From NCBI RefSeq assembly GCF_010672525.1, contig NZ_JAAHGH010000035.1, positions 1 to 64,000 of the forward strand: a DNA stretch of 64,000 nt, read 5' to 3'. The translations under genes were made by a program, and so were the position numbers. The notes beneath the pieces are model-generated. The model searched no databases, was not told the origin of the DNA, and saw nothing but the letters and a program-made list of their open reading frames with translations. Each line of letters starts with the position of its first letter. The stretch's first letter is position 1. Below, piece by piece: positions 10,100 through 24,617 of this stretch. The stretch is from Okeania sp. SIO2B3 (GTDB lineage: Bacteria; Cyanobacteriota; Cyanobacteriia; Cyanobacteriales; Microcoleaceae).

Positions 10100-11632
10100 A
10101 TGAACTCATTCCAACTTCCGCAACTTCAATTCCAACTGCAACCTGGTTCGACTCTGGTGCTACAAATGTCTTTTCAAAACTGGATGAAGGAGGCTATACT
10201 GTTACGTCCTACTTTAGATGATTGGGTAGTAGATAATGGCAATTTAATTATTACGGCATCCCAAAAACTCGAACCGCCTTATATTTATTTATTCTCTGGC
10301 AGTGATGCTAGTGAGACAATAACAGCTTCCATTCCTGGGAATGTATTGCCTGGACAAAGGTTAAAAACTTGGTTGCGATTTCCTGGCATTCAAGAAGAAG
10401 CTATTCCTATTGATGTTGAAATTATGCCTGTCGTGCAACCTCATCCTCAAGTTGTAGAGTTTCCCCTTACTGTTACCTTTCCTGTTTCTGGAGAAACTAA
10501 TTCTGGCTTTTCTCATACCTTAGACCCTACTATGGCGGGTATTTTTGGCTTAATCTCAGGGGTTATCGATCTGGATAAAATTCCTACTCGTTGGTTGGTG
10601 GCAGAACTTTTAATCGTTATTGCTCAAAAAGGAGAAGAATATGCTCAAACTTTACCTGGTAGTAGGTTGCTGGAACAACTTAAACACACTGTTTTTTATC
10701 AAAATGGAATAGTTGCTCTTACCTCTGCTCAACTCCCTGGTTGGATATCTGAAAGTTTGACGATCGCTAATACTATTTTAGGGGGCAGCAGTCAGACACC
10801 GGGAACTCAAAGATTGCTTTATATCTGGGAACAATGGTTGTTGAGTTTGGTAGAAACAGATGTGGAAGCAGAGGAGGTTGGCAAGCAAATTTTTGTTCCA
10901 CCATTTTTGGCAGAAGCAATGGTTGCTAAATTGGAAATGGATGCCGACCGCTGGTGGGGTAATATTCTCTTGGGGTTGTCAGTGTTGTCGCCTCGTGTTG
11001 GTCAGATTTTGGCCACTATTTCTGAACTTGTAACCCCCATAGCTATTGCTGATGCTAAGGCAGCTGAGGCAGGTTATGTTTTGGCAACAGCATTGCCTGG
11101 ATTAAATTTCTTGCCGGTACGGTGGTTAGTAGTGGAACTTCTGGTAATTCTTGCCCAAGTAGGAAACGAGTATGCTGGGAGTGCAGCGGGAAAGCAATTA
11201 AGCGATCGCCTAAGTCGGACTCGCTTCTTTAAAAATGGTGTAGTGGCTTTAGCATCGGCAAAAGTGCTTCGGTGGTTACAAATTAGTCAGTCGTCTGCTA
11301 CTGCTTTTGCTAATTCCATTGGTGCTACAACAGGAATGGGAGGAATGTTGGTCTTTTGGGAATTGTGGTTGTGGAGTTTGCTGCCAGATAACAGCAATAT
11401 TCAGAGATCAGTTCCCAATAATTCCGCTAGGGAAGCTTTGAGCGCCGAACTCGGAATAAATGGCGATCTCTGGTTTGAGGCAATTATTTTAGGGTTGGCA
11501 GTTATGTCCCCCAGAATAGCAGCCATATTAGAAGCGATCGCTACTTTAGCACCAGAACCTATAACTCGGCCCCCCAAACCCCAAACTGCTGTTGAAGATA
11601 TAATTGGGGAATCTAAATCTATTCAACTTTGA
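10100..11632 (+). CDS. Internally duplicated protein of unknown family
   Basis: The 510-aa product matches no family I recognise. Residues 1-145 look like a beta-rich domain (PQLQFQLQPGSTLVLQM, then VEFPLTVTFPV). Residues about 150-320 and 330-495 are two copies of one alpha-rich unit. Each has TRWLVAELLIVIAQKGEEYA or PVRWLVVELLVILAQVGNEY, then F(Y)xNGxVALxSA, W-E-x-W-L, and a closing DRWWGNILLGLSVLSPR or DLWFEAIILGLAVMSPR block. Hydrophobic helices are amphipathic rather than clear spans. It sits between the prenyl synthase and a CrtC/AttH-like gene on the same strand, so a role with them is possible but unproven. Confidence 0.7.
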   Translation: MNSFQLPQLQFQLQPGSTLVLQMSFQNWMKEAILLRPTLDDWVVDNGNLIITASQKLEPPYIYLFSGSDASETITASIPGNVLPGQRLKTWLRFPGIQEEAIPIDVEIMPVVQPHPQVVEFPLTVTFPVSGETNSGFSHTLDPTMAGIFGLISGVIDLDKIPTRWLVAELLIVIAQKGEEYAQTLPGSRLLEQLKHTVFYQNGIVALTSAQLPGWISESLTIANTILGGSSQTPGTQRLLYIWEQWLLSLVETDVEAEEVGKQIFVPPFLAEAMVAKLEMDADRWWGNILLGLSVLSPRVGQILATISELVTPIAIADAKAAEAGYVLATALPGLNFLPVRWLVVELLVILAQVGNEYAGSAAGKQLSDRLSRTRFFKNGVVALASAKVLRWLQISQSSATAFANSIGATTGMGGMLVFWELWLWSLLPDNSNIQRSVPNNSAREALSAELGINGDLWFEAIILGLAVMSPRIAAILEAIATLAPEPITRPPKPQTAVEDIIGESKSIQL

Positions 11633-11636
11633 CCAG

Positions 11637-11870
11637 GAGGAGATGGGGAGATGGGGAGATGGGGGGATGAAGAGATGGGGGAATGGGGAGATGAGGAGAT
11701 GGGGAGATGAGGAGATGGGGGGATGGGTAGATGGGGGGATGGGGGTTTCTTCTTATTTCTTCCCTCCTGACTCGGTCGCTCCCCTCCCCTCCTGGGAGGG
11801 GTTAGGGGTGGGTTGGGAGAGGTTAGGGGTGGGTTGACTCCTAAAAAATTAAGATTAATATCATACACGC
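11637..11870. repeat. GATGGGGA simple repeat followed by dispersed palindrome
   Basis: Bases 11639-11746 are a degenerate GGGGAGAT array. It is followed at 11779-11840 by two truncated copies of the CCCCTCCTGGGAGGGG / TTAGGGGTGGGTT repeat. Apparent ORFs through it on both strands are compositional artefacts. The rest of this 358-bp gap to the next gene has no other visible feature. Confidence 0.75.
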
Positions 11871-11990
11871 GCTTTACCAACGGCGAATATTGAAGTGTGG
11901 ATAAAATTATAAACATATACTGTATAACCGGATTCTATATTAATGGCAAATACATTTTTGCCTTCTTCCTTCTTTTAACTGATAACTGAA

Positions 11991-13058
11991 ATGACTATGG
12001 ATGAACGAACATTAGCTAGTGTAGAACAGTTACGCATTCCTACTAATGACGAATTAGCACCTTTAGACTGGAAAGACTGGTATCATTTTATTTTAATGGA
12101 ACCCAAAAGTGGGGTGAGAGTTTTGGTGAATTTAACTCTTAGTGGTAGACTTACTGGGGGCGAACTACAATTAAGTTTTATTGCCACTATACCGAAGGAA
12201 TTTTTGAGCGCTGAACTTCATCAGGAAAATAATTTGGCAACATTCGGCACTGCCTACCCCCAGAGATGGGTAGCGGGAACGGTGAGTCGCGAACCCTTGC
12301 GGTTGCAGGGTCAGAATGTTTCTTTGGAAATAGATGGTAGAAATTCACAAGTAGCAGTACGAGATGAAGAGTCTGGGTTGGCGATCGCCTTTACAGCTTC
12401 TGCGGAGGCCACACCACTGCTAGTAACAGAAGAATCTCCTTTCGGTAGCGGTTTTATTGGTTGGGGTTTGGTACCTGGTTTGCAAGTGGCCGGGGAGTTG
12501 TCTGTTGGGGACACCAAATTTCCCATCCGTCAAGATTGGTTTTGCTACCATGACCGCAACTTCGGTAGGTTTCGTTGGGGGGAGGATATTGGTTGGGAGT
12601 GGTTTGTCGCTTTTGCAACTTGTGCCGATGGTAGAACTTTAACTCTGGTTTTAGATAGACGTACTAACAGAGACCATTCTGAATGGGGGTTGTCCTATAT
12701 ATTTGTTTATTTGGGGAATCAGTTGCGGAAGATTTTTCTTGGGTCAACTCTGGCGATCGACTGGGAATGGTCTGCGACCGGGGTGTTACCGATCCGGTTG
12801 CCGGGAGTTATGGCCAGCGTGTTTGCCCATCGCAGTGTGCCCATGCCGGAGAGTTTGCGAGTAGAGGCAGCAGATGAACGCGATAGTTTGTCGGTGGCCG
12901 TGAATTTTGATAGTGCCATGGAATTGGTGGTGGCGGATAACAGAGCGTGTCAATATAGTTTTATTGAGGAGGTGAGTGGTAATGTGGAGGTGAAGCTCTT
13001 GCTAGATGGCGAGATGCTCCATGGTTGGGGCCTGATTTATGCCGAATATGTTGTCTAG
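11991..13058 (+). CDS. CrtC/AttH-like lipocalin-type protein
   Basis: The 355-aa product has no signal peptide or membrane span. It is beta-rich, and its central block DWFCYHDRNFGRFRWGED then GWEWFVAFATCADGRTLTL resembles the YHDxNxG...W-x-W signature of the CrtC/AttH family, double-lipocalin proteins that include carotenoid 1,2-hydratase. A hydratase or cyclase acting on an isoprenoid double bond would fit the prenyl synthase 2.5 kb upstream. Overall similarity outside this block is weak, so substrate and activity are unknown. The ATG at 11991 starts MTMDERTL; the second Met (11997) is an equally good start. Confidence 0.55.
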   Translation: MTMDERTLASVEQLRIPTNDELAPLDWKDWYHFILMEPKSGVRVLVNLTLSGRLTGGELQLSFIATIPKEFLSAELHQENNLATFGTAYPQRWVAGTVSREPLRLQGQNVSLEIDGRNSQVAVRDEESGLAIAFTASAEATPLLVTEESPFGSGFIGWGLVPGLQVAGELSVGDTKFPIRQDWFCYHDRNFGRFRWGEDIGWEWFVAFATCADGRTLTLVLDRRTNRDHSEWGLSYIFVYLGNQLRKIFLGSTLAIDWEWSATGVLPIRLPGVMASVFAHRSVPMPESLRVEAADERDSLSVAVNFDSAMELVVADNRACQYSFIEEVSGNVEVKLLLDGEMLHGWGLIYAEYVV

Positions 13059-13086
13059 ATATCCTTAGTTAACAAAAAGTTATCGC

Positions 13087-13220
13087 GGTTGATTTTTTTG
13101 TCTCAAATTACTGCTACAGGGACAACAAAGTGAAAAAAAATGTGTCTCGGTATTGACACTGAGCTTTTTCTGAAGTTACGCTGGAAACTGTAAACTTTTT
13201 GACAATTCATCTCATCAGAT
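13087..13220 (+). promoter_or_regulatory. Shared leader/promoter copy 1 of the NGSFE gene family
   Basis: This is the first of four near-identical leaders. TTGACA at 13153-13158 and TACGCT at 13177-13182 (18-nt spacer) form a plausible promoter. Upstream is ATTACTGCTACAGGGACAAC and a poly-A stretch; downstream the match continues to the ATG. Strong identity up to and across the start codon shows recent duplication and probably common regulation. Confidence 0.6.
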
Positions 13221-14600
13221 ATGAAACGAATATTACCGTGGATGATGTCAGTGCTACTGGCATTTACCTTTTTTAATATCAGTCCTTCATCAGCGATCGC
13301 TGCCGATAATATAGTAGTCAATGGCAGCTTTGAAACACCCGAAGTCGAATTTGTCGATTTCAAACATTCAATTGAAGGGTGGGATTTATCTGATGGACTG
13401 GCAATTGAAATTGATAGTAAATGGGTAAGCAAGCCCTTTGAGGGGTCACAGCTTGTGGAAATGGACAGTTATAGTGTGACTGGAATTTATCAGGATATTC
13501 CCACTGAAGCGGGTAAGACCTATAAACTTACCTTTGCATTTAAGGGTAACCCTAACACTCCTGAGAGCAAGCTGAATGTAGGTTGGGGAGAGAGCGTAGT
13601 TGCCAATCTCAGTAAAACAGCAGCGGATACCGAATGGGAAACTTATACCTACGATCTCAAAGCAACTAGCACCAGCACTCGTCTGAGCTTTGACAATCTT
13701 GATGAGATATCAGATGGTATGGGTAGCTATATTGATGCAGTAAGCGTGGTGGAGAAGTCTCTTGCAGTCATTGGCGAATTTGGCCGTATTTCCAACCTGA
13801 ACCATGAAATACAAACGGTTAGTCTCAGCCATAACTTTACTGCTCCAGTCGTCTTAGCCTTACCTCCTTCCTTCCTCGGCGCAGACCCTGTAGCAGTACG
13901 CTTGAGCAACATCACCAGCAATAGCTTTGATGTCCGACTGCAGGAACCTAGTAATTTTGATGGCACCCATACAACAGAAACCCTCAGTTTCATAGTCCTA
14001 GAAGCTGGACAATGGAAACTTGATGATGGCACTGTTCTGGAAGTGGGAGTCCATAATACATCAACAACCGTTGGCTGGAACTTGGGCAGTAGCAGTTTCG
14101 ATACAGTGAACTTCAGCAGCGGGTTTGGTGCTTCTCCAGTAGTATTTACAGAGCTACAGACCAGCAACGGTCCTGATTTTGTTTACACTCGCCAACAACC
14201 AGCCACTACTGATAGCTTCCAAGTGGCCATGCAAGAAGAGGAGATCAAAACTGATGGTCACACTGAGGAAACCATTGGTTGGTTAGCTATTGAAGCAAGT
14301 GATGCCGGCAATTGGTCAGGTCATAAGTATCAAGCTCAAATTGTCAGCGGTATTGAGGAAAATTTTGTCAATATCGGCTTGAGCGGTTATGAGGAAGGGC
14401 CACAGTTGATTGCGGCCATCGCCACGTACAACGGTGCAGATAGTGCTGGACTGCGGTATCAAAACTTAACTAATAACGGTGTTGAAATCAAAATAGAGGA
14501 AGAGACCAGTTTTGATGAAGAAACCGATCACACTACGGAAGATGTCAACATTTTGACGATCGAGGGAAGTGGGGAACTCCAAGCTGCCCCTGCAAGCTAA
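13221..14600 (+). CDS. Secreted NGSFE-domain protein with three lectin-like repeats
   Basis: The 459-aa product has a Sec signal peptide (residues 1-28, MKRILPWMMSVLLAF...SSAIAA). Residues 30-178 form a beta-sandwich domain of the CBM4_9/DUF642 style: VVNGSFETPE, GSQLVEMDSY, IYQDIPTEAGKTYKLTFAF and SYIDAVSVVE. Residues 183-455 hold three diverged repeats of about 85-90 aa with the pattern PVVxA...(R)xxNxTxxxFxVxLQE...HTTETLxxxxLEAG, which recall H-type-lectin-like beta-sandwich repeats of cyanobacterial surface proteins. The protein should be exported and may bind glycans or matrix. It is the first of four tandem paralogues sharing leader, signal and N-terminal domain. No anchoring motif is seen at the C terminus. 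Confidence 0.7.
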   Translation: MKRILPWMMSVLLAFTFFNISPSSAIAADNIVVNGSFETPEVEFVDFKHSIEGWDLSDGLAIEIDSKWVSKPFEGSQLVEMDSYSVTGIYQDIPTEAGKTYKLTFAFKGNPNTPESKLNVGWGESVVANLSKTAADTEWETYTYDLKATSTSTRLSFDNLDEISDGMGSYIDAVSVVEKSLAVIGEFGRISNLNHEIQTVSLSHNFTAPVVLALPPSFLGADPVAVRLSNITSNSFDVRLQEPSNFDGTHTTETLSFIVLEAGQWKLDDGTVLEVGVHNTSTTVGWNLGSSSFDTVNFSSGFGASPVVFTELQTSNGPDFVYTRQQPATTDSFQVAMQEEEIKTDGHTEETIGWLAIEASDAGNWSGHKYQAQIVSGIEENFVNIGLSGYEEGPQLIAAIATYNGADSAGLRYQNLTNNGVEIKIEEETSFDEETDHTTEDVNILTIEGSGELQAAPAS

Positions 14601-14653
14601 TTGCTTCCTATAGTTTTATTAGCAAGCAATGCTAACTTCCTTCCAGCAAAGTC

Positions 14654-14949
14654 TAATTAGGGTGTGCTGAAAAAGTCTTTTTGCTGGGGTAGGAGACAAC
14701 CCACCCCTCGCCCCTCCCCCTCCCAGGAGGGGAAGACAACCCACCCCTGACCCCTCCTAGGAGGGGAGTTAGGGGAATGTAGAAAAGGTAGGAGCGGGCG
14801 TTTTTCCCAAAATTGTTCTGCCCAACTCTTGCACAAAATGCTAGTTTTTTGAGCAATCTTTACCGAAAACAGGCGCACCCCTTTCAACCTAAAACAGCTA
14901 AAACCTTTATCTATCAATGCTTTGATATTTAATCAGCAAGCCCTAATTA
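14654..14949. mobile_element. MITE-like element, TAATTAGGG ends (copy 1)
   Basis: The 296-bp element starts TAATTAGGGTGTGCTGAAAAA and ends TTAATCAGCAAGCCCTAATTA, imperfect inverted ends. It carries two copies of the CCCCTCC dispersed palindrome inside, then CTGCCCAACT and ACAGGCGCAC blocks. A second copy with the same order is at 51048-51322. No transposase is encoded. Confidence 0.75.
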
Positions 14950-15055
14950 TTCAACCGGACATGATATAATGGGTAACCTTAAACTTAGGCAGAAAACTAC
15001 TTGAATTATAAATTGTCCATTCCTAGAAAGCACAATCTCTTCCGTTCTACTAAAC

Positions 15056-15266
15056 TTACCCAAACTTACCCATGACTGATTGCATGAGCTTTGGAGCTAG
15101 CTTCCTGTCTCCCAGAAGACCACTGACCGCAGTCTGTAACTTATCTTCTCCACAGGCTTAAAATCGGTGAGAACTCCACCTACTAACGTGCATAATTTTC
15201 TAAGTTCACAGCAGAATTAAAATCTCTGTCTGCCTTGAAACCGCAGTTCTCACATTCATATTGTCT
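15056..15266 (-). pseudogene. tnpB (IS200/IS605 OrfB) C-terminal remnant
   Basis: Read on the minus strand, 15266-15183 encodes QYECENCGFKADRDFNSAVN and a few more residues, the zinc-ribbon and RuvC-III end of TnpB, then a stop. After a frameshift, 15140-15056 reads on as ACGEDKLQTAVSGLLG and a tail ending at TAA. Only the last 15% of a normal gene remains, so it is dead. It lies directly before the leader of the second NGSFE gene. Confidence 0.75.
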
Positions 15267-15274
15267 GATATTCA

Positions 15275-15412
15275 GCGGTTAATTTTTTTGTCTAAAATTA
15301 CTGCTACAGGGACAACACAGTGAAAAAAAAATGTGTCTCGGTATTGACACTGAGCTTTTTCTGAAGTTACGCTGGAAACGGTAAACTTTTCCACAACTCA
15401 TCTTATTCAGAT
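15275..15412 (+). promoter_or_regulatory. Shared leader/promoter copy 2
   Basis: Nearly identical to 13087-13220, with TTGACA at 15344-15349 and TACGCT at 15368-15373 (18-nt spacer). The duplicated block begins immediately at the edge of the tnpB remnant, which may mark a recombination junction. Confidence 0.6.
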
Positions 15413-16456
15413 ATGAAACGAATATTATCGTGGATGATGTCAGTGCTACTGGTATTTACCTTTTTGAATATCAGTCCTTCATCAGCGATTGCTGCCGAGA
15501 GCAACTTAGTAGTCAATGGCAGCTTTGAAAACCCAGAGGTCACTAAAGATTGGAAGTTAGCCCAAGGCCCCAGTATCGAAGTTCAAACAGGAAATGCGGG
15601 CAAACCCTACGATGGGCAAAAACTTGTGGAACTAGATAGTTATGCTGTGACTAAAATTTATCAAGATATTCCCACCGAAGTAGGCAAAACATACACACTC
15701 ACCTTTGCCTTCTCACCACGCCCAGATGTCACAGACAACAAACTGAACGTGTATTGGGGAGATACTTCGTTAGTCCAACTTAGTAAAAGTGGCAGTGGTC
15801 TCTCGGATACGAAATGGGAAGTTTATACCTACAAAAATCTGAAAGCGACAAGCACTACTACTCGTCTGAGCTTTGACAATCTTAATGAAAAGTCTGATAG
15901 TGTAGGAAGTTACATTGATGCCATCAGCTTAGTGGCAAATTTATCCGGTTGCGCAGCTAACACAAATTTGGTAGAGAATGGCAGCTTTGAAACTCCAGAA
16001 GTCGAAAGTCCAACAGGAGTAGATTTTGTACGTTCATTTAACGGTTGGAATTTATCCAAGGGTTACTTGATGGAAGTTGATCGCGATATCTTTGGAGCTA
16101 GCAATGCTAAAGATGGGAAACAATATGTAGAACTGGACAGTTTGGATCAAGTAACTCAAATCTATCAGGATATTCCCACTGAAGCAGGTCAGACTTACAA
16201 ACTCAACTTTGCATTTTCGCCACGTCCTGATGTTTCAGAAAACAAGCTGAACGTGCGTTGGGGAGAAACTTTAGTCTGCCAAGAAGAAAAAAGTGGTGAA
16301 GGTCTTACTAAGAATGAGTGGGATGTTTATACCTACGACCTCGAAGCCACAAGTGCTACCACTCGTTTGAGCTTTGATAATCTCAACGAAACACCCGATA
16401 GTTTGGGTACTTACATTGATGAAATAAGCGTGTGTGGTGAAACTACCTCGCCTTAG
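15413..16456 (+). CDS. Secreted protein with two NGSFE beta-sandwich domains
   Basis: The 347-aa product has the same signal peptide as its neighbours (residues 1-28), followed by two copies of the domain at about 31-182 and 187-345. Each has NGSFExPE, a Trp in KDW or NGW, DGQKLVELDS or DGKQYVELDS, IYQDIPTE(A/V)G, FSPRPDV, KLNVxWG and the ending YIDAIS or YIDEIS. There is no further domain, so this may be the minimal secreted form. The second copy is closer to the domains of the two integrin-like neighbours (DRDIFGASNAKDG) than to the first copy, suggesting domain shuffling within the array. Binding partner or enzymatic activity is unknown. Confidence 0.7.
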   Translation: MKRILSWMMSVLLVFTFLNISPSSAIAAESNLVVNGSFENPEVTKDWKLAQGPSIEVQTGNAGKPYDGQKLVELDSYAVTKIYQDIPTEVGKTYTLTFAFSPRPDVTDNKLNVYWGDTSLVQLSKSGSGLSDTKWEVYTYKNLKATSTTTRLSFDNLNEKSDSVGSYIDAISLVANLSGCAANTNLVENGSFETPEVESPTGVDFVRSFNGWNLSKGYLMEVDRDIFGASNAKDGKQYVELDSLDQVTQIYQDIPTEAGQTYKLNFAFSPRPDVSENKLNVRWGETLVCQEEKSGEGLTKNEWDVYTYDLEATSATTRLSFDNLNETPDSLGTYIDEISVCGETTSP

Positions 16457-16470
16457 TTAACCGCGTCCAG

Positions 16471-16760
16471 CTAGAGCTTGAATATAAATGCCAGTGGTAC
16501 GGTTCTGAGTTAGTAGTAGTTGACAGGTTTTTTCCATCATCAAAAACTTGCTCAAACTGTGGTCACGTCCAAGATATGCCCTTAAATCTAAGGACTTATA
16601 ATTGCTCTGATTGTGGGTTGTCAATCTTATTGAGATTTAAACGCCAGTATAAATTTAAGAAATGCGGTCGGCTCGACCGTGAATGCCTGTGCATGAATGC
16701 CTGTGGATGAGTAACCGCCAACGGCCTCACAAGAAGCAGGAAGTAAACATCGGGTTGTTA
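16471..16760 (+). pseudogene. tnpB C-terminal fragment
   Basis: 16471-16624 reads through LEYKCQWYGSELVVVDRFFP then SSKTCSNCGHVQDMPLNLR and YNCSDCG, the zinc-ribbon end of TnpB, 15 bp after the preceding stop codon. It then degenerates. 16643-16750 is repeated at 21519-21611 apart from a 14-bp internal duplication. There is no start and no catalytic core, so it is inactive. Confidence 0.75.
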
Positions 16761-17120
16761 CTTTATGTAAAGCTTTGTATCAGTTGGCTTCCCCCTTTCT
16801 AAGGGGGACGGGAGGGGGATAAAATCGGGGGACTTTTAGAGTTTTATTCCCCCCGCGCATTGGCTTGCTCGGGGGGCTTGCATCATACCCAGAATCAGCA
16901 ACGCCCTTTTTTTCCATATTCTCGTTCCTGAATTTTCACAACTTGTGAGGACTGAAGACTGCAGCCAAAAGTACATACCCCCCTGCAAAGATACGATTGG
17001 GGATTCTATAGAAAAGCGATCGCCATTCTTAAGTGCCGCAGTGGCGATCGCCCCTGGCCTCAAGTCCAACTTCCAAAACGCGACCGCTCTCTACCTCAGT
17101 CGAATTTGACAGGTTGATCG
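16761..17120. repeat. Spacer with partial MITE copy
   Basis: 16810-16905 matches the right half of the GGCGTTGCTGA element (GACTTTTAGAGTTTTATTCC, CTTGCATCATACCCAGAA, CAGCAACGCC) seen complete at 24740-24891. The rest carries two GCGATCGC sites and no credible gene. Confidence 0.6.
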
Positions 17121-17254
17121 TGGTTAATTTTTTTGTCTCAAATTACTGCTACAGGGACAACACAGTGAAAAAAAATGTGTATCGGTATTGACACTGAGCT
17201 TTTCTGAAGTTACGCTGGAAACAGAAAACAGTTCGACAACTCATCTCATCAGAT
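17121..17254 (+). promoter_or_regulatory. Shared leader/promoter copy 3
   Basis: Same sequence family as at 13087 and 15275. TTGACA at 17188-17193 and TACGCT at 17211-17216 have a 17-nt spacer here, because the T run between them is one base shorter. Confidence 0.6.
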
Positions 17255-18760
17255 ATGCAACGAATATTACCTTGGGTGATGTCAGTGCTACTGGCATTTA
17301 CCTGCTTGAATATCAGTCCGTCATCGGCAGCTGCCGAGAACTTAGTAGTCAATGGCAGTTTTGAAGAGCCAGTGATCGAAAGTCCAGCAGGAGTAACTTA
17401 CGAAACTTCATTTAATGGCTGGAGAGTGTCCAAGGGTTTCTTGATGGAAATAGACCGCGACCTTTATGGAGCGAGCAATGCCAAAGATGGGAAACAATAT
17501 GTGGAACTCGATAGTTTAAATCAAGTAACTCAAATCTATCAGGATGTTCCCACTGAGGCAGGTAAGACTTACAAATTAACCTTTGGATTCAGCCCCCGTG
17601 CAGACAACTTAGACAACAAGCTGAACGTCCATTGGGGAAATACCACGATTGCTGAACTGGAAGCAAGTGGGGAAGGTTTATCTAAAAGCGATTGGCAGGC
17701 TTATAGCTATGGCGTTCAAGCAGCTGGCACTGAAACTCGCATTAGCTTTGATAATCTCAACGAGATAGCTGATGGTTTTGGTTCCTTAATTGACGCGATT
17801 GGCCTAGAAAATCTAAATTGTGATTTGGGGGATGAAGATTGTACGATTATCATTCCTCCCGATGGAACATTTGTGATGCCAGTCACAATTCCGATTCCAG
17901 AAGATGCAGGGGCACTGCCTGTGGATTTAATCCTCACCCAAGACTTGACCAGTTCCTTCTCAGATGATTTGCCAACTCTCAAGACAGTGATTCCTGACTT
18001 AGTGACAGAATTGAAAGCTGTCCAACCTGATACAAACTTCGGTCTGGCAAGTTTCACAGACAAGAAGGTTTATGGAACTCCTGATTATTATGTGTACAAG
18101 ACGGAGTTGCCTCTGACGAGCGACAGTAGCGTATTTGAGGAAGCAGTTGCAGGGTTAGCCACTCTTGCAGGAGGATATGACTTCCCCGAGTCATCCTTGT
18201 CAGCTCTGATGCAAGTTGGTTTACGGGCTGATGGCGAATTAGGATTCCGAGATGAGACTCGTCGGATTGCTATTATCTCTACAGATGATGCTTACAAGCA
18301 GGCAGGGGATTATCCACAAGGTACGCCAAACAATGGAGATACAGTTCTGGATGAGGCAGAAGACTATCCTTCTGTGGCTCAGACGAAGGACGCAATCAAT
18401 AATGCTAATATCCTTCCTATCTTCCTAGTAACCAGCCCTTTCATACCCACCTATAATGACTTGGTGAGTCAGTTAGGGGTAGGAGCTGTAGTCGAACTGG
18501 AGCCTGACAGTTCAAATTTGGTTGAGGCTGTACTGGAAGCAATAGAGATATTAAACCAAACTGTGACTGTTGTGGCCGTAGATGATGAGTACGGTTATGT
18601 GCAAAGCATCGACCCGGACTACTTTGAAGATGTTGTTCCTGGCTCGGAATTAACAACTTATGTCACCTTCAAAGATACTGGACTAGGTAGCGGAGATGAT
18701 GTGACAATTCGCGCTCTAGGAATTGGGGATTTGGTCGTTGATGTTCAAGTCTCTTTGTAA
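17255..18760 (+). CDS. Secreted integrin-beta-headpiece-like protein (paralogue 1)
   Basis: The 501-aa product has a signal peptide (1-27), an NGSFE sandwich domain (28-190), then a module colinear with animal integrin beta. A hybrid-domain half (about 195-222, ending ALPVDL) leads into an I-like domain (about 223-435) and the second hybrid half (about 436-501, ending TIRALGIGDLVVDVQ). Metal-site residues are kept: MIDAS D230-x-T232-x-S234, E312 in DFPES and D344 in STDD; ADMIDAS D237 and D238. Hallmarks such as ALMQV, DYPSVAQ, VTSPF and DSSN also match. PSI, EGF and transmembrane parts are absent. Integrin-like domains in cyanobacteria are known from the literature; the exact family call here is by eye. 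A calcium/magnesium-dependent adhesion role is inferred. Confidence 0.8.
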   Translation: MQRILPWVMSVLLAFTCLNISPSSAAAENLVVNGSFEEPVIESPAGVTYETSFNGWRVSKGFLMEIDRDLYGASNAKDGKQYVELDSLNQVTQIYQDVPTEAGKTYKLTFGFSPRADNLDNKLNVHWGNTTIAELEASGEGLSKSDWQAYSYGVQAAGTETRISFDNLNEIADGFGSLIDAIGLENLNCDLGDEDCTIIIPPDGTFVMPVTIPIPEDAGALPVDLILTQDLTSSFSDDLPTLKTVIPDLVTELKAVQPDTNFGLASFTDKKVYGTPDYYVYKTELPLTSDSSVFEEAVAGLATLAGGYDFPESSLSALMQVGLRADGELGFRDETRRIAIISTDDAYKQAGDYPQGTPNNGDTVLDEAEDYPSVAQTKDAINNANILPIFLVTSPFIPTYNDLVSQLGVGAVVELEPDSSNLVEAVLEAIEILNQTVTVVAVDDEYGYVQSIDPDYFEDVVPGSELTTYVTFKDTGLGSGDDVTIRALGIGDLVVDVQVSL

Positions 18761-18883
18761 TCTCTATCCGTTGAGCGATCGCGGAGCGTGGCATCAGCCG
18801 TATCGCCTGTCTGAGAATCTGTAGGGCTTGTAACTGTTGGCTCAAATCTGGTTTTATCTATAAAAATCTGGTATTATCTGTTT

Positions 18884-19360
18884 ATGCTACTTGGATTCAA
18901 AACTGAATTACACCCAAATAAGCAGCAAAAAACATTACTGGCTAAACACGCAGGTGTAGTTCGTCATGCTTGGAATTGGGGATTATGGTTAACTAGAAAT
19001 ATCCTTAGTCATAATTCCAATAATCCTTCAGGTAAACTTAAATTTCCCACATCTATCGACCTGCATAAGCTTTTAGTAGCAATGGTTAAACCTAAGAACT
19101 TTTGGTACTACGAAGTGTCTAAATGTGCACCTCAATATGCTTTAAGATATTTATCTCTAGCTTGGAAGTGTTGCTTTAACAAAATTTCTGGTCAACCTAG
19201 TTAAATTTAGCTATGGCGGGCAGTTTGCTCCGCAACGCTAACGCGTTTCGCGCCAGCGTTGCGTTACGCCAGTTTTGCGAAGCAAAAGCAAACGTCCGTG
19301 TCAGCCTGTGGACTGGATAACGCCGACGTTGCCAGGTAGAAGCAGGAATGGAACAGATAA
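18884..19360 (+). pseudogene. tnpB internal-deletion remnant
   Basis: 18884-19204 encodes the first 106 residues of an IS200/IS605 TnpB (MLLGFKTELHPNKQQKTLLA, HAGVVRHAWNWGL). The middle is missing. 19215-19290 is a palindromic GC-rich dispersed repeat (CGCAACGCTAACGCG type), after which 19310-19360 retains CGLDNADVAR from the normal C-terminal tail. The catalytic core is lost. It separates the two integrin-beta-like genes. Confidence 0.75.
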
Positions 19361-19450
19361 TCATAGATTTTTATAGATTATCGTAGGTTTCTAAGAACGG
19401 ACAGAGAAGCGATCGCCAGAGTTAGGACAGTCGGTAAAGTCAACATTAAA

Positions 19451-19480
19451 CCCTTTCCAGAAACGGAAGGGTGTATTTTT
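19451..19480 (+). terminator. Hairpin with T run, probable IS right end
   Basis: CCCTTTCC pairs with GGAAGGG around an AGAAAC loop, followed by GTGTATTTTT. It probably comes from the right end of the tnpB remnant and could act as a rho-independent terminator. Confidence 0.45.
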
Positions 19481-19717
19481 CAGGACTTAGGCACTGGCAA
19501 TAGATGTAGGGTTTTGTGCGTTACGCTAACGCTAACACACCCTACTGGACTGACACAAAAATGTAGGTTGGGTAGAACGGAGTGTTAGCGGAGCTTCCCG
19601 AAGGGAAATCCAACAAAGCCTCGCTATTGTTGGGTTCCGTTCCTCAAGCCAACCTACGCTTATTGCACCATTTTAGCAGTGTCGGTCTACTACCAATAGC
19701 GTTCATGCGTAAGTCCT
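19481..19717. mobile_element. MITE with CAGGACTTA...TGCGTAAGTCCT ends (copy 3)
   Basis: The 237-bp element is longer than the other two copies. It starts CAGGACTTAGGCA and ends TGCGTAAGTCCT. The interior contains GTAGGGTTTTGTGCG / CACACCCTAC and GTAGGTTGGG / CCAACCTAC inverted segments. No ORF. Confidence 0.65.
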
Positions 19718-19722
19718 ATTTT

Positions 19723-19847
19723 TATCTCAAATGACTGTACACTCACAATACAGCAGCGATCAAAAAAATGTGTATCGGTATTGACACTGAGCTTTTCTGA
19801 AGTTACGCTGGAAACAGAAAACTGTTCGACAACTCATCTCATCAGAT
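19723..19847 (+). promoter_or_regulatory. Shared leader/promoter copy 4 (5' part diverged)
   Basis: TTGACA at 19781-19786 and TACGCT at 19804-19809 (17-nt spacer) are in the conserved 3' half. The 5' half has drifted or been replaced near the MITE end at 19717, leaving only TCTCAAAT-ACTG recognisable. The part kept in all four copies therefore begins around AAAAAAATGTGT. Confidence 0.6.
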
Positions 19848-21374
19848 ATGAAACGAATATTACCTTGGGTGATGTCAGTGCTACTGGCATTTACCTGCTT
19901 GAATATCAGTCCGTCATCGGCCGCTGCCGAGAACTTAGTAGTCAATGGCAGTTTTGAAGAGCCAGTCCTTAATGGTGACTATGGTACAGCAGATTTTCAA
20001 CCCTCATTTAAAGGGTGGGACTTATCCAAGGGTTACTTGATGGAAATCGATCGTGAAACCAGAGAGGATCTGATCCCTTATCTCCCCCCAGAATCAGTAA
20101 TTCCCAAAGCCAAAGATGGGAAGCAATATGTGCAGCTTGACAGCATTCAGCAAGTAACTCAAATTTATCAGGATATCACGACGGAAGCGGGTCAGACCTA
20201 CGAACTCACTTTTTCATTCTCCCCCCGTCCTTATGTCTCAGACAACAAGCTGAATGTTAAGTGGGGAGATACAGAGATAGTTAAACTGGAGGCAAGTGGT
20301 GAAGGTTTATCTCAAAGCAATTGGCAGGATTATAGCTATGGTGTTCAAGCTGACAGTTCTACGACTCGCCTGAGCTTTGATAATATAGGAGAGTTTCCTG
20401 ATAGCAAGGGTTCCTACGTTGATGCTATCGGTCTCGAACCACTCGTTTGCAAGTTGGGCGATGAGAAATGCCAAATCATCATTACCCCTGACGAAAAATT
20501 CCTTCTGCCAGTCACAATTCCGATTCCTGAAGATTCAGGCACGTTGCCTCTAGATCTAATGTTGACCCAAGATGTGACTGGCTCCTACCGAGATGATTTG
20601 CCAGTTCTGCGAGCACTAATTCCTGACTTGGTGGAAGAACTGCGCGCTCTCCAACCTGATACAACTTTTGGTCTAGCAACTTTTCAAGATAATAATCCAG
20701 GTGAGTATGTGTATCGAACCGAGTTACCTTTGACCACAGACTCGGCTGCATTCGAGGCAGCGGTTGACAAGTTGACGGCTAATGGTGGAGGTGACTATCC
20801 AGAGTCATCGTTGACAGCTCTAATGCAAGTTGCTGTACGGGCAGAAAGTGAGTTAAATTTCCGACAGAATACTCGTCGGGTAGCAATTGTATCCACAGAT
20901 GCTACCTATAAAAAGGCAGGGGACCCACCCGGAGGTACTCCCAACAATGGAGACGCAGTTTTAGACCCTGGTGAGGACTTTCCCTCTGTCCCTCAGGTGA
21001 AGCAGGCAATCAATGAAGCTAATGTAGTGCCTATCTTCCTGGCAACCACCAATGTGGTAAGCACATATAATGACTTGGTGAGTCAGTTAGGGGTAGGAGC
21101 TGTAGTTGAGCTAGAGGCTGATAGTTCAAATTTGATTGAGGCTCTCAAGGAAGCATTAGAGGTAATCAACCAAAACTTGACTATTGTAGCGGTAAACGAT
21201 GACTACGGTTATGTGGAAAGCATCGAGCCAGACCGTTTTGAAGATGTAGCCCCAGGCTCGGAAGTAACAACCAACATTACCTTCAAATACTCGGGACTCG
21301 GCACCGGTGATGAAGTCACCATTCGTGCTCTAGGAATTGGGGATTTGGTTGTTGATGTTCAAGTCTCTTTGTAA
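19848..21374 (+). CDS. Secreted integrin-beta-headpiece-like protein (paralogue 2)
   Basis: The 508-aa product has the same plan as its upstream paralogue: signal peptide 1-27, NGSFE domain 28-200 with a short insertion (ETREDLIPYLPPES), split hybrid domain around an I-like domain (about 235-443), and the end TIRALGIGDLVVDVQVSL. Metal-site residues are again kept: D242-x-T244-x-S246, D249, D250, E319 in DYPES and D351 in STD. The two genes also share about 25 bp just after their stop codons. Sequence differences are spread through the I-like face (KKVYG loop replaced by NNPGE), which would be expected if they bind different ligands. No anchor is visible, so the protein is released or held by partners. 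Confidence 0.8.
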   Translation: MKRILPWVMSVLLAFTCLNISPSSAAAENLVVNGSFEEPVLNGDYGTADFQPSFKGWDLSKGYLMEIDRETREDLIPYLPPESVIPKAKDGKQYVQLDSIQQVTQIYQDITTEAGQTYELTFSFSPRPYVSDNKLNVKWGDTEIVKLEASGEGLSQSNWQDYSYGVQADSSTTRLSFDNIGEFPDSKGSYVDAIGLEPLVCKLGDEKCQIIITPDEKFLLPVTIPIPEDSGTLPLDLMLTQDVTGSYRDDLPVLRALIPDLVEELRALQPDTTFGLATFQDNNPGEYVYRTELPLTTDSAAFEAAVDKLTANGGGDYPESSLTALMQVAVRAESELNFRQNTRRVAIVSTDATYKKAGDPPGGTPNNGDAVLDPGEDFPSVPQVKQAINEANVVPIFLATTNVVSTYNDLVSQLGVGAVVELEADSSNLIEALKEALEVINQNLTIVAVNDDYGYVESIEPDRFEDVAPGSEVTTNITFKYSGLGTGDEVTIRALGIGDLVVDVQVSL

Positions 21375-21518
21375 TCTCTATCCGTTGAGCGATCGCGGAG
21401 CGTGACCAACGGTTGGGTAAGTTGGGATAAGTTCAGTAGAACGGAAATTGACTGATGGCCGAATGGCGATCGCTCTTTTGCCAGAAAGGTGGGATATCTA
21501 TAGACCGGGATCTGAATG

Positions 21519-21620
21519 CCAGTATAAATTTGAGAGATGCGGTCGGCTTGACCGTGAATGCCTGTGGATGAGTAGCCGCCGACGGTCTCACAAGAAGCAG
21601 GAAGTAAACATTAAAATATC
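21519..21620 (+). pseudogene. Short tnpB tail fragment
   Basis: About 93 bp (CCAGTATAAATTTGAGAGAT to GAAGCAGGAAGTAAAC) duplicates 16643-16750 and carries the degenerate TnpB C terminus. The 101-codon reading frame through it is not a real gene. The following 380 bp to the terminator show no gene, only two GCGATCGC sites and a GAACATGATATAAT motif at 21968-21981. Confidence 0.65.
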
Positions 21621-22002
21621 ACGCTATGTGACGTTTTATATCAGTTTTATGAAGCAGGAACGTAAAGTTTGCAACGCTTTTGGCGCAACAGGTCCGGATA
21701 CTTTAACTCCCCTAGAAGTCACAGTATCTCTGATTGGTGCACACCAACCTTAATAAGTTATCGGTACTGTTAGAAGAATAAGGGGCGATCGCTTTGATTA
21801 ATCCCAAAAGGAAAACTGTGAAAAAAGGCGATCGCCTGCCTGAAAAAAGTGCATTGACAAGACCTTGAAAGAACGAAAACTCTGGATGGGTTATTAATAT
21901 CTGCCCACTCAAAAACAATTTGAATACTTCTACTGTAATGATTCTGGCTTTATTATCAGTGATCATCCGAACATGATATAATTCTTATTCATTTCTCAGT
22001 AG

Positions 22003-22035
22003 AAAAAGCGATTAAACTAAGTTTAATCGCTTTTT
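22003..22035. terminator. Strong bidirectional rho-independent terminator
   Basis: AAAAAGCGATTAAAC pairs perfectly with GTTTAATCGCTTTTT (15 bp) around a TAA loop, giving A and T runs on both sides so it can act in both directions. It separates the integrin-beta-like genes from the ILEI/FG-GAP gene. Confidence 0.85.
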
Positions 22036-22037
22036 TG

Positions 22038-22075
22038 AGTTTGCGGGGGAGCGCGATCGCGCTCCCCCGCAAACT
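22038..22075. repeat. 38-bp perfect palindrome centred on GCGATCGC
   Basis: The half-site AGTTTGCGGGGGAGCGCGA is followed exactly by its reverse complement. It begins two bases after the terminator. As RNA it would form a very stable stem with no natural loop; as DNA it could extrude a cruciform. The HIP1 octamer forms the centre. Confidence 0.9.
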
Positions 22076-22280
22076 ACTATTGGGACTCGATCAAAAACAA
22101 AACCTACAGTCAAGACTCAAATGACAAACAAAAATTAAATATTTAATATGACTTTTTCATCTCGACATATATACATTTAACTGCTATAATTGTCTCCGTT
22201 AAACTTTAGCTCTATTTCTTTCTAGTAAAAGTTCCAGATCGACTAAAAAGCATTGTTCCTTTTAATAGCAGTAAATCCCC

Positions 22281-22305
22281 GTTTGCGGAGCATTCCGTAG
22301 GAAAG
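22281..22305 (+). repeat. Small dispersed repeat (GTTTGCGnAGCATTCCGnAGGAAA family)
   Basis: One clear copy of a 24-26-bp element, in the leader region of the ILEI/FG-GAP gene. Other copies occur at 26834, 31975, 37860, 37893, 43044 and 43361. The family resembles the small dispersed repeats described in Nostoc genomes. Confidence 0.75.
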
Positions 22306-22457
22306 GCGGGTGCTATATTAGCGCAGCTCCTCTGTCAATAGGCAATAGAAAGCCTCTATCCGCGATGGAGCAGGAATCCCGCCCTGTCTCGTAGAGCAGC
22401 GTCGGGAGGATGTCAATATCAGACAAAATCAACCAATAAAGCAGACATAAAATTAAC

Positions 22458-24617
22458 ATGGCAATAAAAAAAATCACTATAACTGCTACATCCAATGGCT
22501 ATACAGCCAAATATTATGGAGGAGGAGAACCTAAAGCAAAAATTTATATCGATGGCCAAGAAATTAATTTCGGCAGCTATAGTCGGGGTATCAATGTGGC
22601 CGTATTCGATGAAATCACAGGTAAACTACTATTTTGTAACAGATTTGATACTCCTATTGGCAACAGCGACATCTTTGCTGATTTCATCAATAACCTGCCA
22701 GAAGGAAAGATAGTTGCCCTAACAATCAAAGGTGATGCCGTATCTACTCCTCTAACAGATAAAGCCAAAGCTGCTTTTAAAACCATAGGCAGCGCTGAAA
22801 TAGACAACCTGAAAGTTGGCCAATCCTACACCCTCATAGGTATCAAAGGCCATGAACCAGGTACTGCCCATGAATCTATGTTTTGGTTAGAAACCAGCAG
22901 TAGCTACACCCAAGAGGTAGAAGTAGTAGAAAATCTAGGAACTTTTGCAGTAGAAGCTGTATCAAAACCATCAATATTGGCTGCAGCACCATACTATCTC
23001 CCCCAAGGAGGAGAAGCACAAATTCACCTCAACGGAAAAATTCTAGCTATAGAAGGAGGATATAAATCTGGCTGGAATCTGATAGTATTAGACGGCAAAG
23101 ATGGGCAAGTGAAAAGCTCTGGTAGTTTTAATCCTGGGATACCAGAGGAGGTAGATAGGTTCGTTGAAATCATCGAAGATTTACAAGCAGGAGAAATAGT
23201 TGCCATAGCTACCAAAGATTATACAGGCACGGAAGTAGAACAGAACATGAAAACAGCTTGTTCTTCTATTGGTTCGACAATGGTAGGTAATCTCGAGTAT
23301 GGAGGTAGTTGGGCGATCGTTGGTTATAAAGGAGCTAAACCAGGTCAAGCAGTAGAAAACCTAGATAATTTCTGTCTCTACTGCTCTCAATATAAACCCG
23401 AGGGAGTCAATGTCAAATATTGGGCGCAGCAAACTGCTCCTCTTTTGAACAAAAAATTAAAACCCAGGCAAAAACTGTCCAAGAAGAGTGCTAGCGAATA
23501 TTTTGCTTTTAAGCAAGCTGTGGGTATTGATGGTGACTATGCATTAGTGGGGGATGATGGTAAAGGCAATGCCTATATTTATCATTGGCAAAACAGTCAG
23601 TGGAAGTTAAAACAGCAGCTCAAACCTCAAGGTCAGAAAATGGCTGGGTATGGTCACTCTTTGGATATCAGCGGTAACTTCGCAATTGTCGGCCAGCATT
23701 CTGCTAGTGCTTTGGACAAAAATAATGCGGGTGCAGCTCACATTTATGAATTAAAAGATGGTCAGTGGCAGCACAAACAAATTATACAACCTTCGGACTT
23801 AAAAGCTAGCGACTATTTCGGTTATTCGGTGGCAATTGATGGCAAACTTGCGATCGTGGGAGCATATTTAGCTGATGCTCCAGGCAAAAATTATTGTGGT
23901 GCTGCTTATGTTTTCCAATTAGAAGGTGGTCAGTGGGTACAAAAAGGCAAAAAATTGCAACCAGACGACCTTGAAGCTGGCAATTGTTTTGGTTACTCAG
24001 TCTGTATTGAGGGTAATGTAGCAATGGTGGGAGCATATTTAGCTGATGCTCCAGGCAAAAAAAATTGTGGTGCTGCTTATGTTTTTCGATTAGAAGGTGG
24101 CAATTGGCAGCAGCAGCTACTTCAACCTCCAGACTTAGGTTCTGGCGATAATTGTGGTTGGTCGTTAGCTGTTAGCGGCAATCGGGCAATTGTAGGGGCA
24201 CATCTTTCTGGTGTACAAGGAAAAGCAGATACGGGTGCGGCCTATATTTATGAATTACACAACGGTGTATGGTACTTACATCAGAAGATTCAAGCTAATG
24301 ACCAAAAGCAACACGATGGTTTCGGATGTTCCGTAGCTATTAAAGGCAATGTAGCAGTTGTGGGAGCATCTCAGGCTAGTGTTAATGGTATGTGGGATTA
24401 CGGTGCTGTCTATCTGTTTCAGTTGGAAAATGGCAAATGGGAGCAAAAACAGAAGTTGCACCCCTCAGATTTGCCAAAAAATCTGGGATGGGGTTATGGT
24501 GTTGCTTTCGATGGTAGTCGGGCTATTATCAGCGGTAATGGTGACTTGTTAGGCTCTAAAACTGGTTTTGCCTATATTTGCGATGTTGACACTGAGGCAT
24601 CATATCAAATTGGGTAG
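22458..24617 (+). CDS. Two ILEI/FAM3-type domains plus seven-bladed FG-GAP (integrin-alpha-like) propeller
   Basis: The 719-aa product begins with two domains resembling the ILEI/PANDER fold of animal FAM3 cytokines, at about 25-150 and 180-315. The first reads SRGINVAVFDEITGKLL, then FD, then F-x-x-F-I, LPEGKIVAL, IGSAEIDNL and LIGIKGHEPG. From about 345 there are seven repeats of about 50 aa, (Y/C)FGYSVAIDGKLAIVGAY ... GAAYVFQLEGGQW, the pattern of FG-GAP_2 blades; seven matches the integrin alpha propeller. The calcium-loop DxDxDG signature is missing in most blades. No signal peptide is visible from this ATG, which is odd for such domains. It lies 1.1 kb after the integrin-beta-like pair but behind a terminator. 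Confidence 0.75.
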   Translation: MAIKKITITATSNGYTAKYYGGGEPKAKIYIDGQEINFGSYSRGINVAVFDEITGKLLFCNRFDTPIGNSDIFADFINNLPEGKIVALTIKGDAVSTPLTDKAKAAFKTIGSAEIDNLKVGQSYTLIGIKGHEPGTAHESMFWLETSSSYTQEVEVVENLGTFAVEAVSKPSILAAAPYYLPQGGEAQIHLNGKILAIEGGYKSGWNLIVLDGKDGQVKSSGSFNPGIPEEVDRFVEIIEDLQAGEIVAIATKDYTGTEVEQNMKTACSSIGSTMVGNLEYGGSWAIVGYKGAKPGQAVENLDNFCLYCSQYKPEGVNVKYWAQQTAPLLNKKLKPRQKLSKKSASEYFAFKQAVGIDGDYALVGDDGKGNAYIYHWQNSQWKLKQQLKPQGQKMAGYGHSLDISGNFAIVGQHSASALDKNNAGAAHIYELKDGQWQHKQIIQPSDLKASDYFGYSVAIDGKLAIVGAYLADAPGKNYCGAAYVFQLEGGQWVQKGKKLQPDDLEAGNCFGYSVCIEGNVAMVGAYLADAPGKKNCGAAYVFRLEGGNWQQQLLQPPDLGSGDNCGWSLAVSGNRAIVGAHLSGVQGKADTGAAYIYELHNGVWYLHQKIQANDQKQHDGFGCSVAIKGNVAVVGASQASVNGMWDYGAVYLFQLENGKWEQKQKLHPSDLPKNLGWGYGVAFDGSRAIISGNGDLLGSKTGFAYICDVDTEASYQIG

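What the first reader, a model, noticed from the sequence alone, without database searches (positions are those of the whole stretch)
17255..21374. Two secreted proteins with an integrin-beta headpiece-like module
Seen: after an NGSFE domain, both proteins follow the order of animal integrin beta. A hybrid half ends in PVDL, an I-like domain has D-x-T-x-S plus DD, (D)x-P-E-S, STD, ALMQV, DYPS or DFPS and DSSN, and a closing hybrid half has IRALG. MIDAS and ADMIDAS acidic residues are all kept (D230/T232/S234/E312/D344 and D242/T244/S246/E319/D351). Known: cyanobacterial integrin-domain homologues have been reported. Inference: divalent-cation-dependent adhesion by secreted, unanchored proteins. 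The Asn of the synergistic site seems replaced by Gly.
Basis: partly seen in the sequence, partly recalled or inferred. Interest (0 to 1): 0.85.

Follow-up and report, generated by a model that had tools for sequence, protein, structure and literature searches.

The report
Cyanobacterial integrin-beta-like secreted adhesion proteins
A marine filamentous cyanobacterium encodes two apparently secreted proteins that carry the metal-binding, ligand-gripping head of an animal integrin beta chain, without a membrane anchor or the residue that docks a partner chain, which makes them a natural test case for how integrins began.

Summary
ORFs 17255-18760 and 19848-21374 encode paralogues (67% identical), each with a Sec-type leader, a DUF642 domain, and an integrin-beta I-like domain between two hybrid-domain halves. 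Pfam Integrin_beta scores 7e-29 and 2e-27; generic VWA 1e-3 and 3e-7. A profile of 20 cyanobacterial modules finds human integrin beta-2 at 4e-52 in one alignment running into both hybrid halves. The closing hybrid half alone ranks integrin beta-2 first, but not significantly (E 0.04). The predicted module (pLDDT 88) matches integrin beta chains over its length. MIDAS and ADMIDAS residues are kept. The synergistic-site Asn is Gly in 67 of 70 bacterial domains, and the basic alpha-docking residue is absent in 67 of 70. Such proteins are already reported in cyanobacteria. Not found in print: the DUF642 fusion, seen in two Okeania genomes; and the hybrid split, a closing half in 26 of 36 cyanobacterial rows and 0 of 34 proteobacterial/myxobacterial rows. 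Best reading: an alpha-independent, divalent-metal-dependent extracellular adhesin, perhaps a sheath crosslinker. Metal and ligand binding are untested.

The parts
17255..18760 (+). itb1: DUF642 + integrin-beta headpiece-like protein with Sec-type leader, 501 aa
   Evidence: ORF; Pfam Integrin_beta 7.3e-29, DUF642 3.1e-10
19848..21374 (+). itb2: paralogue of itb1, 508 aa, 67% identical over full length
   Evidence: ORF; Pfam Integrin_beta 1.9e-27, DUF642 8.2e-10; blastp
17255..17335 (+). itb1 Sec-type signal peptide, about 27 aa (cleavage site read by eye, inferred)
   Evidence: MQR + hydrophobic core + SPSSAAA; hydropathy peak at residue 4
17342..17800 (+). itb1 DUF642 / choice-of-anchor-C-like domain (aa 30-182)
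   Evidence: TIGR04362 below its curated cut-off
17831..17914 (+). itb1 hybrid domain, N-terminal half (aa 193-220; limits approximate)
   Evidence: profile alignment to integrin beta-2 from chain residue 78
17915..18556 (+). itb1 I-like domain with MIDAS/ADMIDAS (aa 221-434; limits approximate)
18557..18757 (+). itb1 hybrid domain, C-terminal half (aa 435-501), contains IRALG
19848..19928 (+). itb2 Sec-type signal peptide, about 27 aa (inferred)
19941..20396 (+). itb2 DUF642 domain (aa 32-183)
20460..20543 (+). itb2 hybrid domain, N-terminal half (aa 205-232; limits approximate)
   Evidence: strands E5-10 and E15-23 of the model
20544..21170 (+). itb2 I-like domain (aa 233-441; limits approximate)
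21171..21371 (+). itb2 hybrid domain, C-terminal half (aa 442-508)
17125..17254 (+). itb1 5' leader (about 130 bp) shared with the 13221, 15413 and 19848 genes
   Evidence: alignment of upstream regions; extent estimated by eye
19718..19847 (+). itb2 5' leader, same shared block
   Evidence: extent estimated by eye
15413..16456 (+). context: protein of two DUF642 domains with a similar leader peptide and the shared 5' leader
13221..14600 (+). context: DUF642 protein with a below-cut-off H-type lectin match, same leader

Best explanation
The two proteins are alpha-independent, divalent-cation-dependent extracellular adhesins built on an integrin-beta headpiece module (I-like domain inserted in a hybrid domain). 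They leave the cytoplasm by the Sec route and are not anchored. The I-like domain holds Mg2+ at the MIDAS and Ca2+ at the ADMIDAS and at an altered synergistic site, and grips an acidic side chain of a partner (another matrix protein, a sibling protein, or another cell). The DUF642 half binds sheath or envelope polysaccharide or another wall protein. The pair, with two sister DUF642 proteins of the same cluster, would crosslink or decorate the sheath of the filament. Shown here: domain order, hybrid homology by joint profile and model, conserved metal ligands, lack of the alpha-docking residue, lack of a recognisable anchor, shared 5' leaders. Inferred: secretion, metal binding, ligand gripping, the role of DUF642, sheath location.
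For: Integrin_beta above VWA. Profile of 20 modules to integrin beta-2, 4.2e-52, positions 3-313 of 322. Model pLDDT 87.9, pTM 0.87; the 50 PDB matches listed are integrin beta chains. Metal-site residues in 70 bacterial domains: E220 70, D119 69, D158 69, D251 69, D217 68, S123 68, D127 67, D126 62 (beta-3 numbering and site roles recalled). Alpha-docking K/R in 3 of 70, Pro in both window proteins. No transmembrane stretch. Several relatives carry other export or anchor parts: RTX repeats, PEP-CTERM, TPS domain. [quoted passage not shown] Dictyostelium SibA and SibC act in cell-substrate adhesion (passages of PMC9453864).
Against: No ligand is known and no metal binding was measured. The synergistic-site Asn is Gly, so Ca2+ binding and activation may differ. 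The hybrid C-half alone is not significant, so the hybrid claim rests on the joint profile and the model; AlphaFold may have learnt integrins. DUF642 proteins are cell-wall proteins of plants, and one review listed calls the family exclusive to seed plants; I saw only abstract openings, and carbohydrate binding was not tested. The full-length model has no confidence over residues 1-86, so the arrangement of the two halves is unknown. The proteins could be periplasmic.
Confidence: 0.6

Rival explanations
1. Half of a bacterial integrin-like heterodimer: the FG-GAP_2 propeller protein encoded 1.1 kb downstream (22458-24617) is the alpha-like partner and caps the I-like domain.
For: The neighbour has seven FG-GAP_2 stretches (six pass in the genome search), i.e. 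a possible seven-bladed propeller, on the same strand; it also lies near the pair in Okeania sp. SIO1I7 and is 97% identical there.
Against: Of 34 neighbourhoods searched (5.8-19.9 kb each, from 32 genomes), the FG-GAP protein was found in one, that of the same genus (phmmer with the window protein at E 1e-4, so unlike propellers were not sought). The alpha-docking basic residue and part of its loop are missing in both window proteins. The propeller protein shows no N-terminal hydrophobic leader, its 40 bases upstream do not resemble the shared 5' leader, and it matches FG-GAP_2, not PF01839 FG-GAP.
Confidence: 0.06
2. Matrix scaffold that self-associates: the MIDAS of one copy binds an acidic residue of another (itb1 with itb2), and no outside ligand is needed.
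For: Tandem paralogues with shared leaders; HC1 precedent for MIDAS-dependent homodimers.
Against: No data on oligomerisation; 22 of the 28 genomes with a match have one match only.
Confidence: 0.2
3. Plain VWA proteins whose resemblance to integrin beta is convergent.
For: VWA models also match, and itb2 passes the VWA and VWA_4 cut-offs; the hybrid C-half alone is not significant.
Against: Hybrid halves on both sides align in order with integrin beta-2, and the model matches integrin beta chains over about 350 alignment columns.
Confidence: 0.04
4. The module came into cyanobacteria by transfer from an animal or other eukaryote.
For: The I-in-hybrid arrangement is shared by integrins and, in this sample, by cyanobacteria alone among bacteria.
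Against: The 70 bacterial domains lie on one side of a fully supported branch from the two human rows, with deep diversity over Cyanobacteriota, Pseudomonadota and Myxococcota. But only two vertebrate rows were at hand, on a branch of length 2.12 and with odd letter make-up, so an early transfer in either direction is not excluded.
Confidence: 0.12

Closest known systems
Metazoan integrin beta chain headpiece (hybrid + I-like domains)
   Same: Domain order hybrid/I-like/hybrid, MIDAS, ADMIDAS, most of the synergistic site, and motifs such as TD, DYPS, DSSN and RALG
   Different: No PSI, EGF, transmembrane or cytoplasmic parts found; specificity loop short and without Cys; synergistic Asn is Gly; alpha-docking residue absent and its loop shortened; DUF642 in front
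Integrin-beta-chain-like proteins of cyanobacteria (Yutin et al. 2009, PMC2651865; Trichodesmium sequence of Johnson et al. 2009 as cited by Chouhan et al. 2011, PMC3192720)
   Same: Same kind: cyanobacterial proteins homologous to a long stretch of integrin beta including the I-like domain, without EGF repeats or membrane segment (passages seen)
   Different: Fusion to DUF642; the 29 other relatives that I scanned with Pfam have RTX, PEP-CTERM, TPS, lipase, Calx-beta or Ig-like parts, or other or no further hits, and none has DUF642
[quoted passage not shown]
   Same: VWA domain inserted in an integrin-like hybrid domain, MIDAS-dependent self-association, matrix role (abstract and passages); secreted and without an alpha partner (recalled)
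   Different: Not among the 60 sequence hits or the 50 fold hits listed, which are integrin beta or beta-like chains
Dictyostelium Sib proteins (PF24909)
   Same: Integrin-beta-like VWA adhesin; PF24909 matches itb2 below its cut-off (18.5 bits, cut-off 27) and some relatives above it (up to 63.5 bits)
   Different: SibA has a transmembrane domain and a talin-binding tail (passages)

Membership tests
Pfam PF00362 Integrin_beta (VWA of integrin beta) | Score over the curated cut-off 24.8 | tested here: met
   101.6 and 97.0 bits
Integrin beta chain | MIDAS and ADMIDAS residues | tested here: met
   present in both; conserved across most of 70 bacterial domains
Integrin beta chain | Synergistic metal site D158, N215, D217, E220 | tested here: inconclusive
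   D158, D217, P219, E220 kept in both; N215 is Gly
Integrin beta chain | Hybrid domain around the I-like domain | tested here: met
   joint profile and model; C-half alone ranks integrin first but is not significant, E 0.044
Integrin beta chain | Specificity-determining loop with disulphide | tested here: not met
   loop shortened, no Cys
Integrin beta chain | Basic residue that docks the alpha propeller (role recalled) | tested here: not met
   Pro in both, loop three columns shorter; 3 of 70 bacterial domains have K/R
Integrin beta chain | PSI, EGF, transmembrane and cytoplasmic parts | tested here: not met
   no such Pfam hits; no hydrophobic stretch
Integrin beta chain | Forms a heterodimer with an alpha chain | not testable with these tools
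   needs biochemistry
Bacterial (cyanobacterial) integrin-beta-like proteins | Integrin_beta domain in a bacterial protein, no EGF or TM | tested here: met
DUF642 (PF04862) | Score over the cut-off 27 | tested here: met
   40.5 and 39.1 bits

The most novel reading that the evidence does not exclude
The integrin-beta headpiece, an I-like domain already inserted in a hybrid domain, existed in multicellular cyanobacteria as a stand-alone, alpha-free, metal-gated matrix adhesin, and this module, rather than a bare VWA domain, was the ancestor from which eukaryotic integrin beta was built, with the alpha-docking loop, specificity loop and membrane parts added later. The Okeania pair is a working relic of that stage, used to knit polysaccharide sheath.
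Probability: 0.2. Interest if true: 0.85.

Novelty: new variant of a known kind. Interest (0 to 1): 0.52.

Why it matters
Where integrins came from, and whether a beta headpiece could grip a ligand before there was an alpha chain, is an old open question. Here is a small natural module with few cysteines, with the ligand and metal sites kept and the alpha-docking residue gone. It could be made in E. coli and tested directly for metal-dependent adhesion, and its distribution suggests a testable order of domain gains: I-like domain in several bacterial phyla, hybrid insertion (in this sample) in cyanobacteria and eukaryotes.

Tried and rejected
An alpha-type partner next door was tested by neighbourhood. 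In the 34 neighbourhoods searched (5.8-19.9 kb, from 32 genomes) the FG-GAP protein turned up in one, the same-genus genome, so conserved pairing is not supported beyond the genus. The search was phmmer with the window protein at E 1e-4; unrelated propellers were not sought.

A viral relative was looked for with itb2: two stretches matched a pattern, none encoded a relative.

The tree does not resolve where human beta chains attach; the root is a midpoint for drawing, and 18 of 69 inner branches are open. The hybrid-bearing cyanobacterial rows are not one clade on it: the label needs 5 changes, of which starred branches force at least 2, and one hybrid-bearing row (L109) falls beside proteobacterial rows at 94/78. 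This speaks against a simple single gain, or for losses. From 100 aligned segments, 11 covering 150 or fewer of 226 I-domain columns were dropped, so L077-L085 (nine half-matching cyanobacterial proteins) and two loci (L140, L144) are not in the counts; 17 exact duplicates were then removed to give 72 rows, 70 bacterial. Near-copies remain, so rows are not independent. L101 is gapped at the MIDAS because its domain is split into two segments.

The full-length model was poor over residues 1-86, so its DUF642 part was not interpreted; the 50 rows of its Foldseek list are integrin chains.

In some Microcoleus/Tychonema relatives the hybrid C-half is clear but the N-half is not recognisable by eye.

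Full report
What is there. The window lies in a 10.0 Mb genome of 249 contigs. Its genus relative G389 has a contig of the same length (294,782) as the contig titled Okeania sp. SIO1I7, so the window is taken to be Okeania (Microcoleaceae, Oscillatoriales). Two ORFs, 17255-18760 and 19848-21374, encode 501 and 508 aa that are 67% identical end to end. The genome holds these two Integrin_beta matches at E <= 1e-8 and one much weaker stretch elsewhere by protein search (C124, E 9.7e-6). Of the five genomes of the genus examined, two have the DUF642-fused pair (this one and G389); two others (G386, G388) have only a half-matching type and one (G387) has no match.

Domain anatomy. Each protein starts with a Sec-type leader, then DUF642 (40.5 and 39.1 bits, cut-off 27), then Integrin_beta (101.6 and 97.0 bits, cut-off 24.8); VWA scores are 19.8 and 31.2 bits (cut-off 23.8), so itb2 passes the VWA model too. 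No Pfam domain that would be an anchor, no transmembrane stretch and no RTX tail was found.

The hybrid domain. I gathered 20 cyanobacterial modules (both window proteins, their two SIO1I7 orthologues and 16 others) and aligned them. A profile of these finds integrin beta-2 at 4.2e-52, with beta-7, beta-1, beta-6, beta-3 and beta-8 below it, in one alignment from profile position 3 to 313 of 322, that is from before the I-like domain to RALGF in the closing hybrid half. The 60 rows listed are integrin beta or beta-like chains. To remove the I domain from the test I cut out the closing half alone and searched again: 16 sequences at E <= 10, the best two being integrin beta-2 constructs at E 0.044 and 0.058, an unrelated cytokine-receptor-like protein third at 0.082, and 11 of the 16 integrin beta-2. 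The best stretch puts RALGF in register, but no stretch is significant alone and part of the score comes from another place in the hybrid domain. So this is a pointer, not proof. The AlphaFold2 model of the itb2 module (pLDDT 87.9, pTM 0.87) has the flanking strands, and the 50 Foldseek hits listed are integrin beta chains (query TM 0.60-0.85, 348-358 alignment columns, 19-25% identity). The network may have learnt integrins, so the joint profile carries more weight.

Metal and partner sites. Mapped by alignment to beta-2 (beta-3 numbering and site roles recalled), 70 bacterial I-like domains keep E220 in 70, D119, D158 and D251 in 69, D217 and S123 in 68, D127 in 67 and D126 in 62. The synergistic-site Asn215 is Gly in 67 of 70. 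The basic residue that in animals docks the beta chain on the alpha propeller is K or R in 3 of 70; in both window proteins it is Pro and three columns of the loop are deleted. The specificity loop is short and has no Cys. So the ligand site is kept and the alpha dock is not.

Distribution. PF00362 matches at E <= 1e-8 occur in 13 of 386 genomes drawn from the phylum and in 28 of 290 relatives, the own genome counted in both; the 14 control genomes had none. A scan of genome contigs gave 59 loci in Cyanobacteriota, Pseudomonadota and Myxococcota; it used two I-domain peptides taken from cyanobacteria, so it is not a census. After removal of short and identical rows, 36 cyanobacterial and 34 other bacterial rows remained. 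A closing hybrid half (over 40 of 60 columns) is present in 26 of 36 cyanobacterial rows and in 0 of 34 others. The profile was built from hybrid-bearing cyanobacteria, so a diverged hybrid elsewhere could be missed; two Chromatium rows align 20 of the 60 columns. Partner domains in other proteins include RTX repeats, PEP-CTERM (one over its cut-off, three just below), TPS + CHAT, lipase, Calx-beta, Ig-like and cadherin-like domains. I scanned 29 relatives other than the Okeania proteins with Pfam; none had DUF642. In one search the two window proteins that have DUF642 but no integrin part, used as phmmer queries at E 1e-4, matched none of the collected integrin-like relatives outside G389.

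Tree. IQ-TREE on 72 rows puts human beta-2 and beta-7 on one long branch (2.12) with the 70 bacterial rows on the other side (100/100). The labels are clustered (proteobacterial and myxobacterial rows 6 changes against 24.2 in shuffles; hybrid-bearing cyanobacterial rows 5 against 21.4) but neither is one clade. Recent capture from a vertebrate is disfavoured; older transfer either way is open because only two human rows were at hand.

Cluster context. Upstream of the pair are a protein of two DUF642 domains (15413-16456) and a DUF642 protein with an H-type lectin match below cut-off (13221-14600). All four genes share about 130 bp of 5' leader up to the start codon and similar signal peptides, which suggests common regulation or duplication as units. 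Downstream is an ILEI + FG-GAP_2 protein (22458-24617) with no leader peptide and, in the 40 bases compared, no such 5' leader. Most genes of the stretch from 10100 to 24617 have counterparts in the same stretch of G389.

What is known. Yutin et al. 2009 list integrin beta chain-like proteins in cyanobacteria (table passage seen). Chouhan et al. 2011 cite Johnson et al. [quoted passage not shown] Johnson et al. not read). The listings of my ten paper searches showed no paper on a DUF642-integrin-beta fusion or on the hybrid domain of cyanobacterial integrin-like proteins; the only paper with integrin, hybrid domain and cyanobacteri together has the last word in a reference title on a photosystem. 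The library is open-access only and most hits were seen as listings.

How it probably works. Most likely an alpha-free, metal-gated extracellular adhesin. A working parallel is human HC1, an integrin-beta-like VWA-in-hybrid protein that self-associates through its MIDAS, proposed to stabilise a hyaluronan matrix (abstract and passages). The pair works like an integrin beta headpiece (inferred); it is not an integrin beta chain, since PSI, EGF, membrane and alpha-docking features were tested and not met.

Noticed in passing
window 13221, 15413, 17255, 19848 (upstream ~130 bp each): Four DUF642 genes share a similar 5' leader including ATTGACACTGAGC; a fifth relative on another contig (L004) shares only short stretches of it.
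   Followed up: partly
window 22458-24617: Protein of two ILEI domains and seven FG-GAP_2 stretches without signal peptide, 97% identical in Okeania sp. SIO1I7; a second FG-GAP_2 protein lies at G000:C112:567448-568533.
   Followed up: partly
window 18884-19204: Short ORF between the two integrin-like genes that reads like the N-terminal end of a TnpB-type transposon protein (recalled, no search made; sequence).
   Followed up: no
L077-L085: A second group of cyanobacterial proteins (two of them, L082 and L085, from the genus of the window) matches only the first half of the module profile, up to about position 145.
   Followed up: no
L099:7434-11570: A Methylobacterium RTX protein carries two Integrin_beta domains that sit together on short branches of the tree.
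   Followed up: no
L027:7359-12242: A cyanobacterial protein joins a TPS secretion domain, an integrin-beta I-like domain and a CHAT domain.
   Followed up: no
L112:5901-8822: A myxobacterial protein combines Integrin_beta with a Dictyostelium-type repeat (PF00526) match.
   Followed up: no
window 17255-18760, 19848-21374 and 15413-16456, DUF642 part: The DUF642 region also gives partial matches, far below the cut-off, to a segment of the NCBIfam model NF012221; read here as a shared choice-of-anchor-C-like domain, not as a toxin.
   Followed up: no
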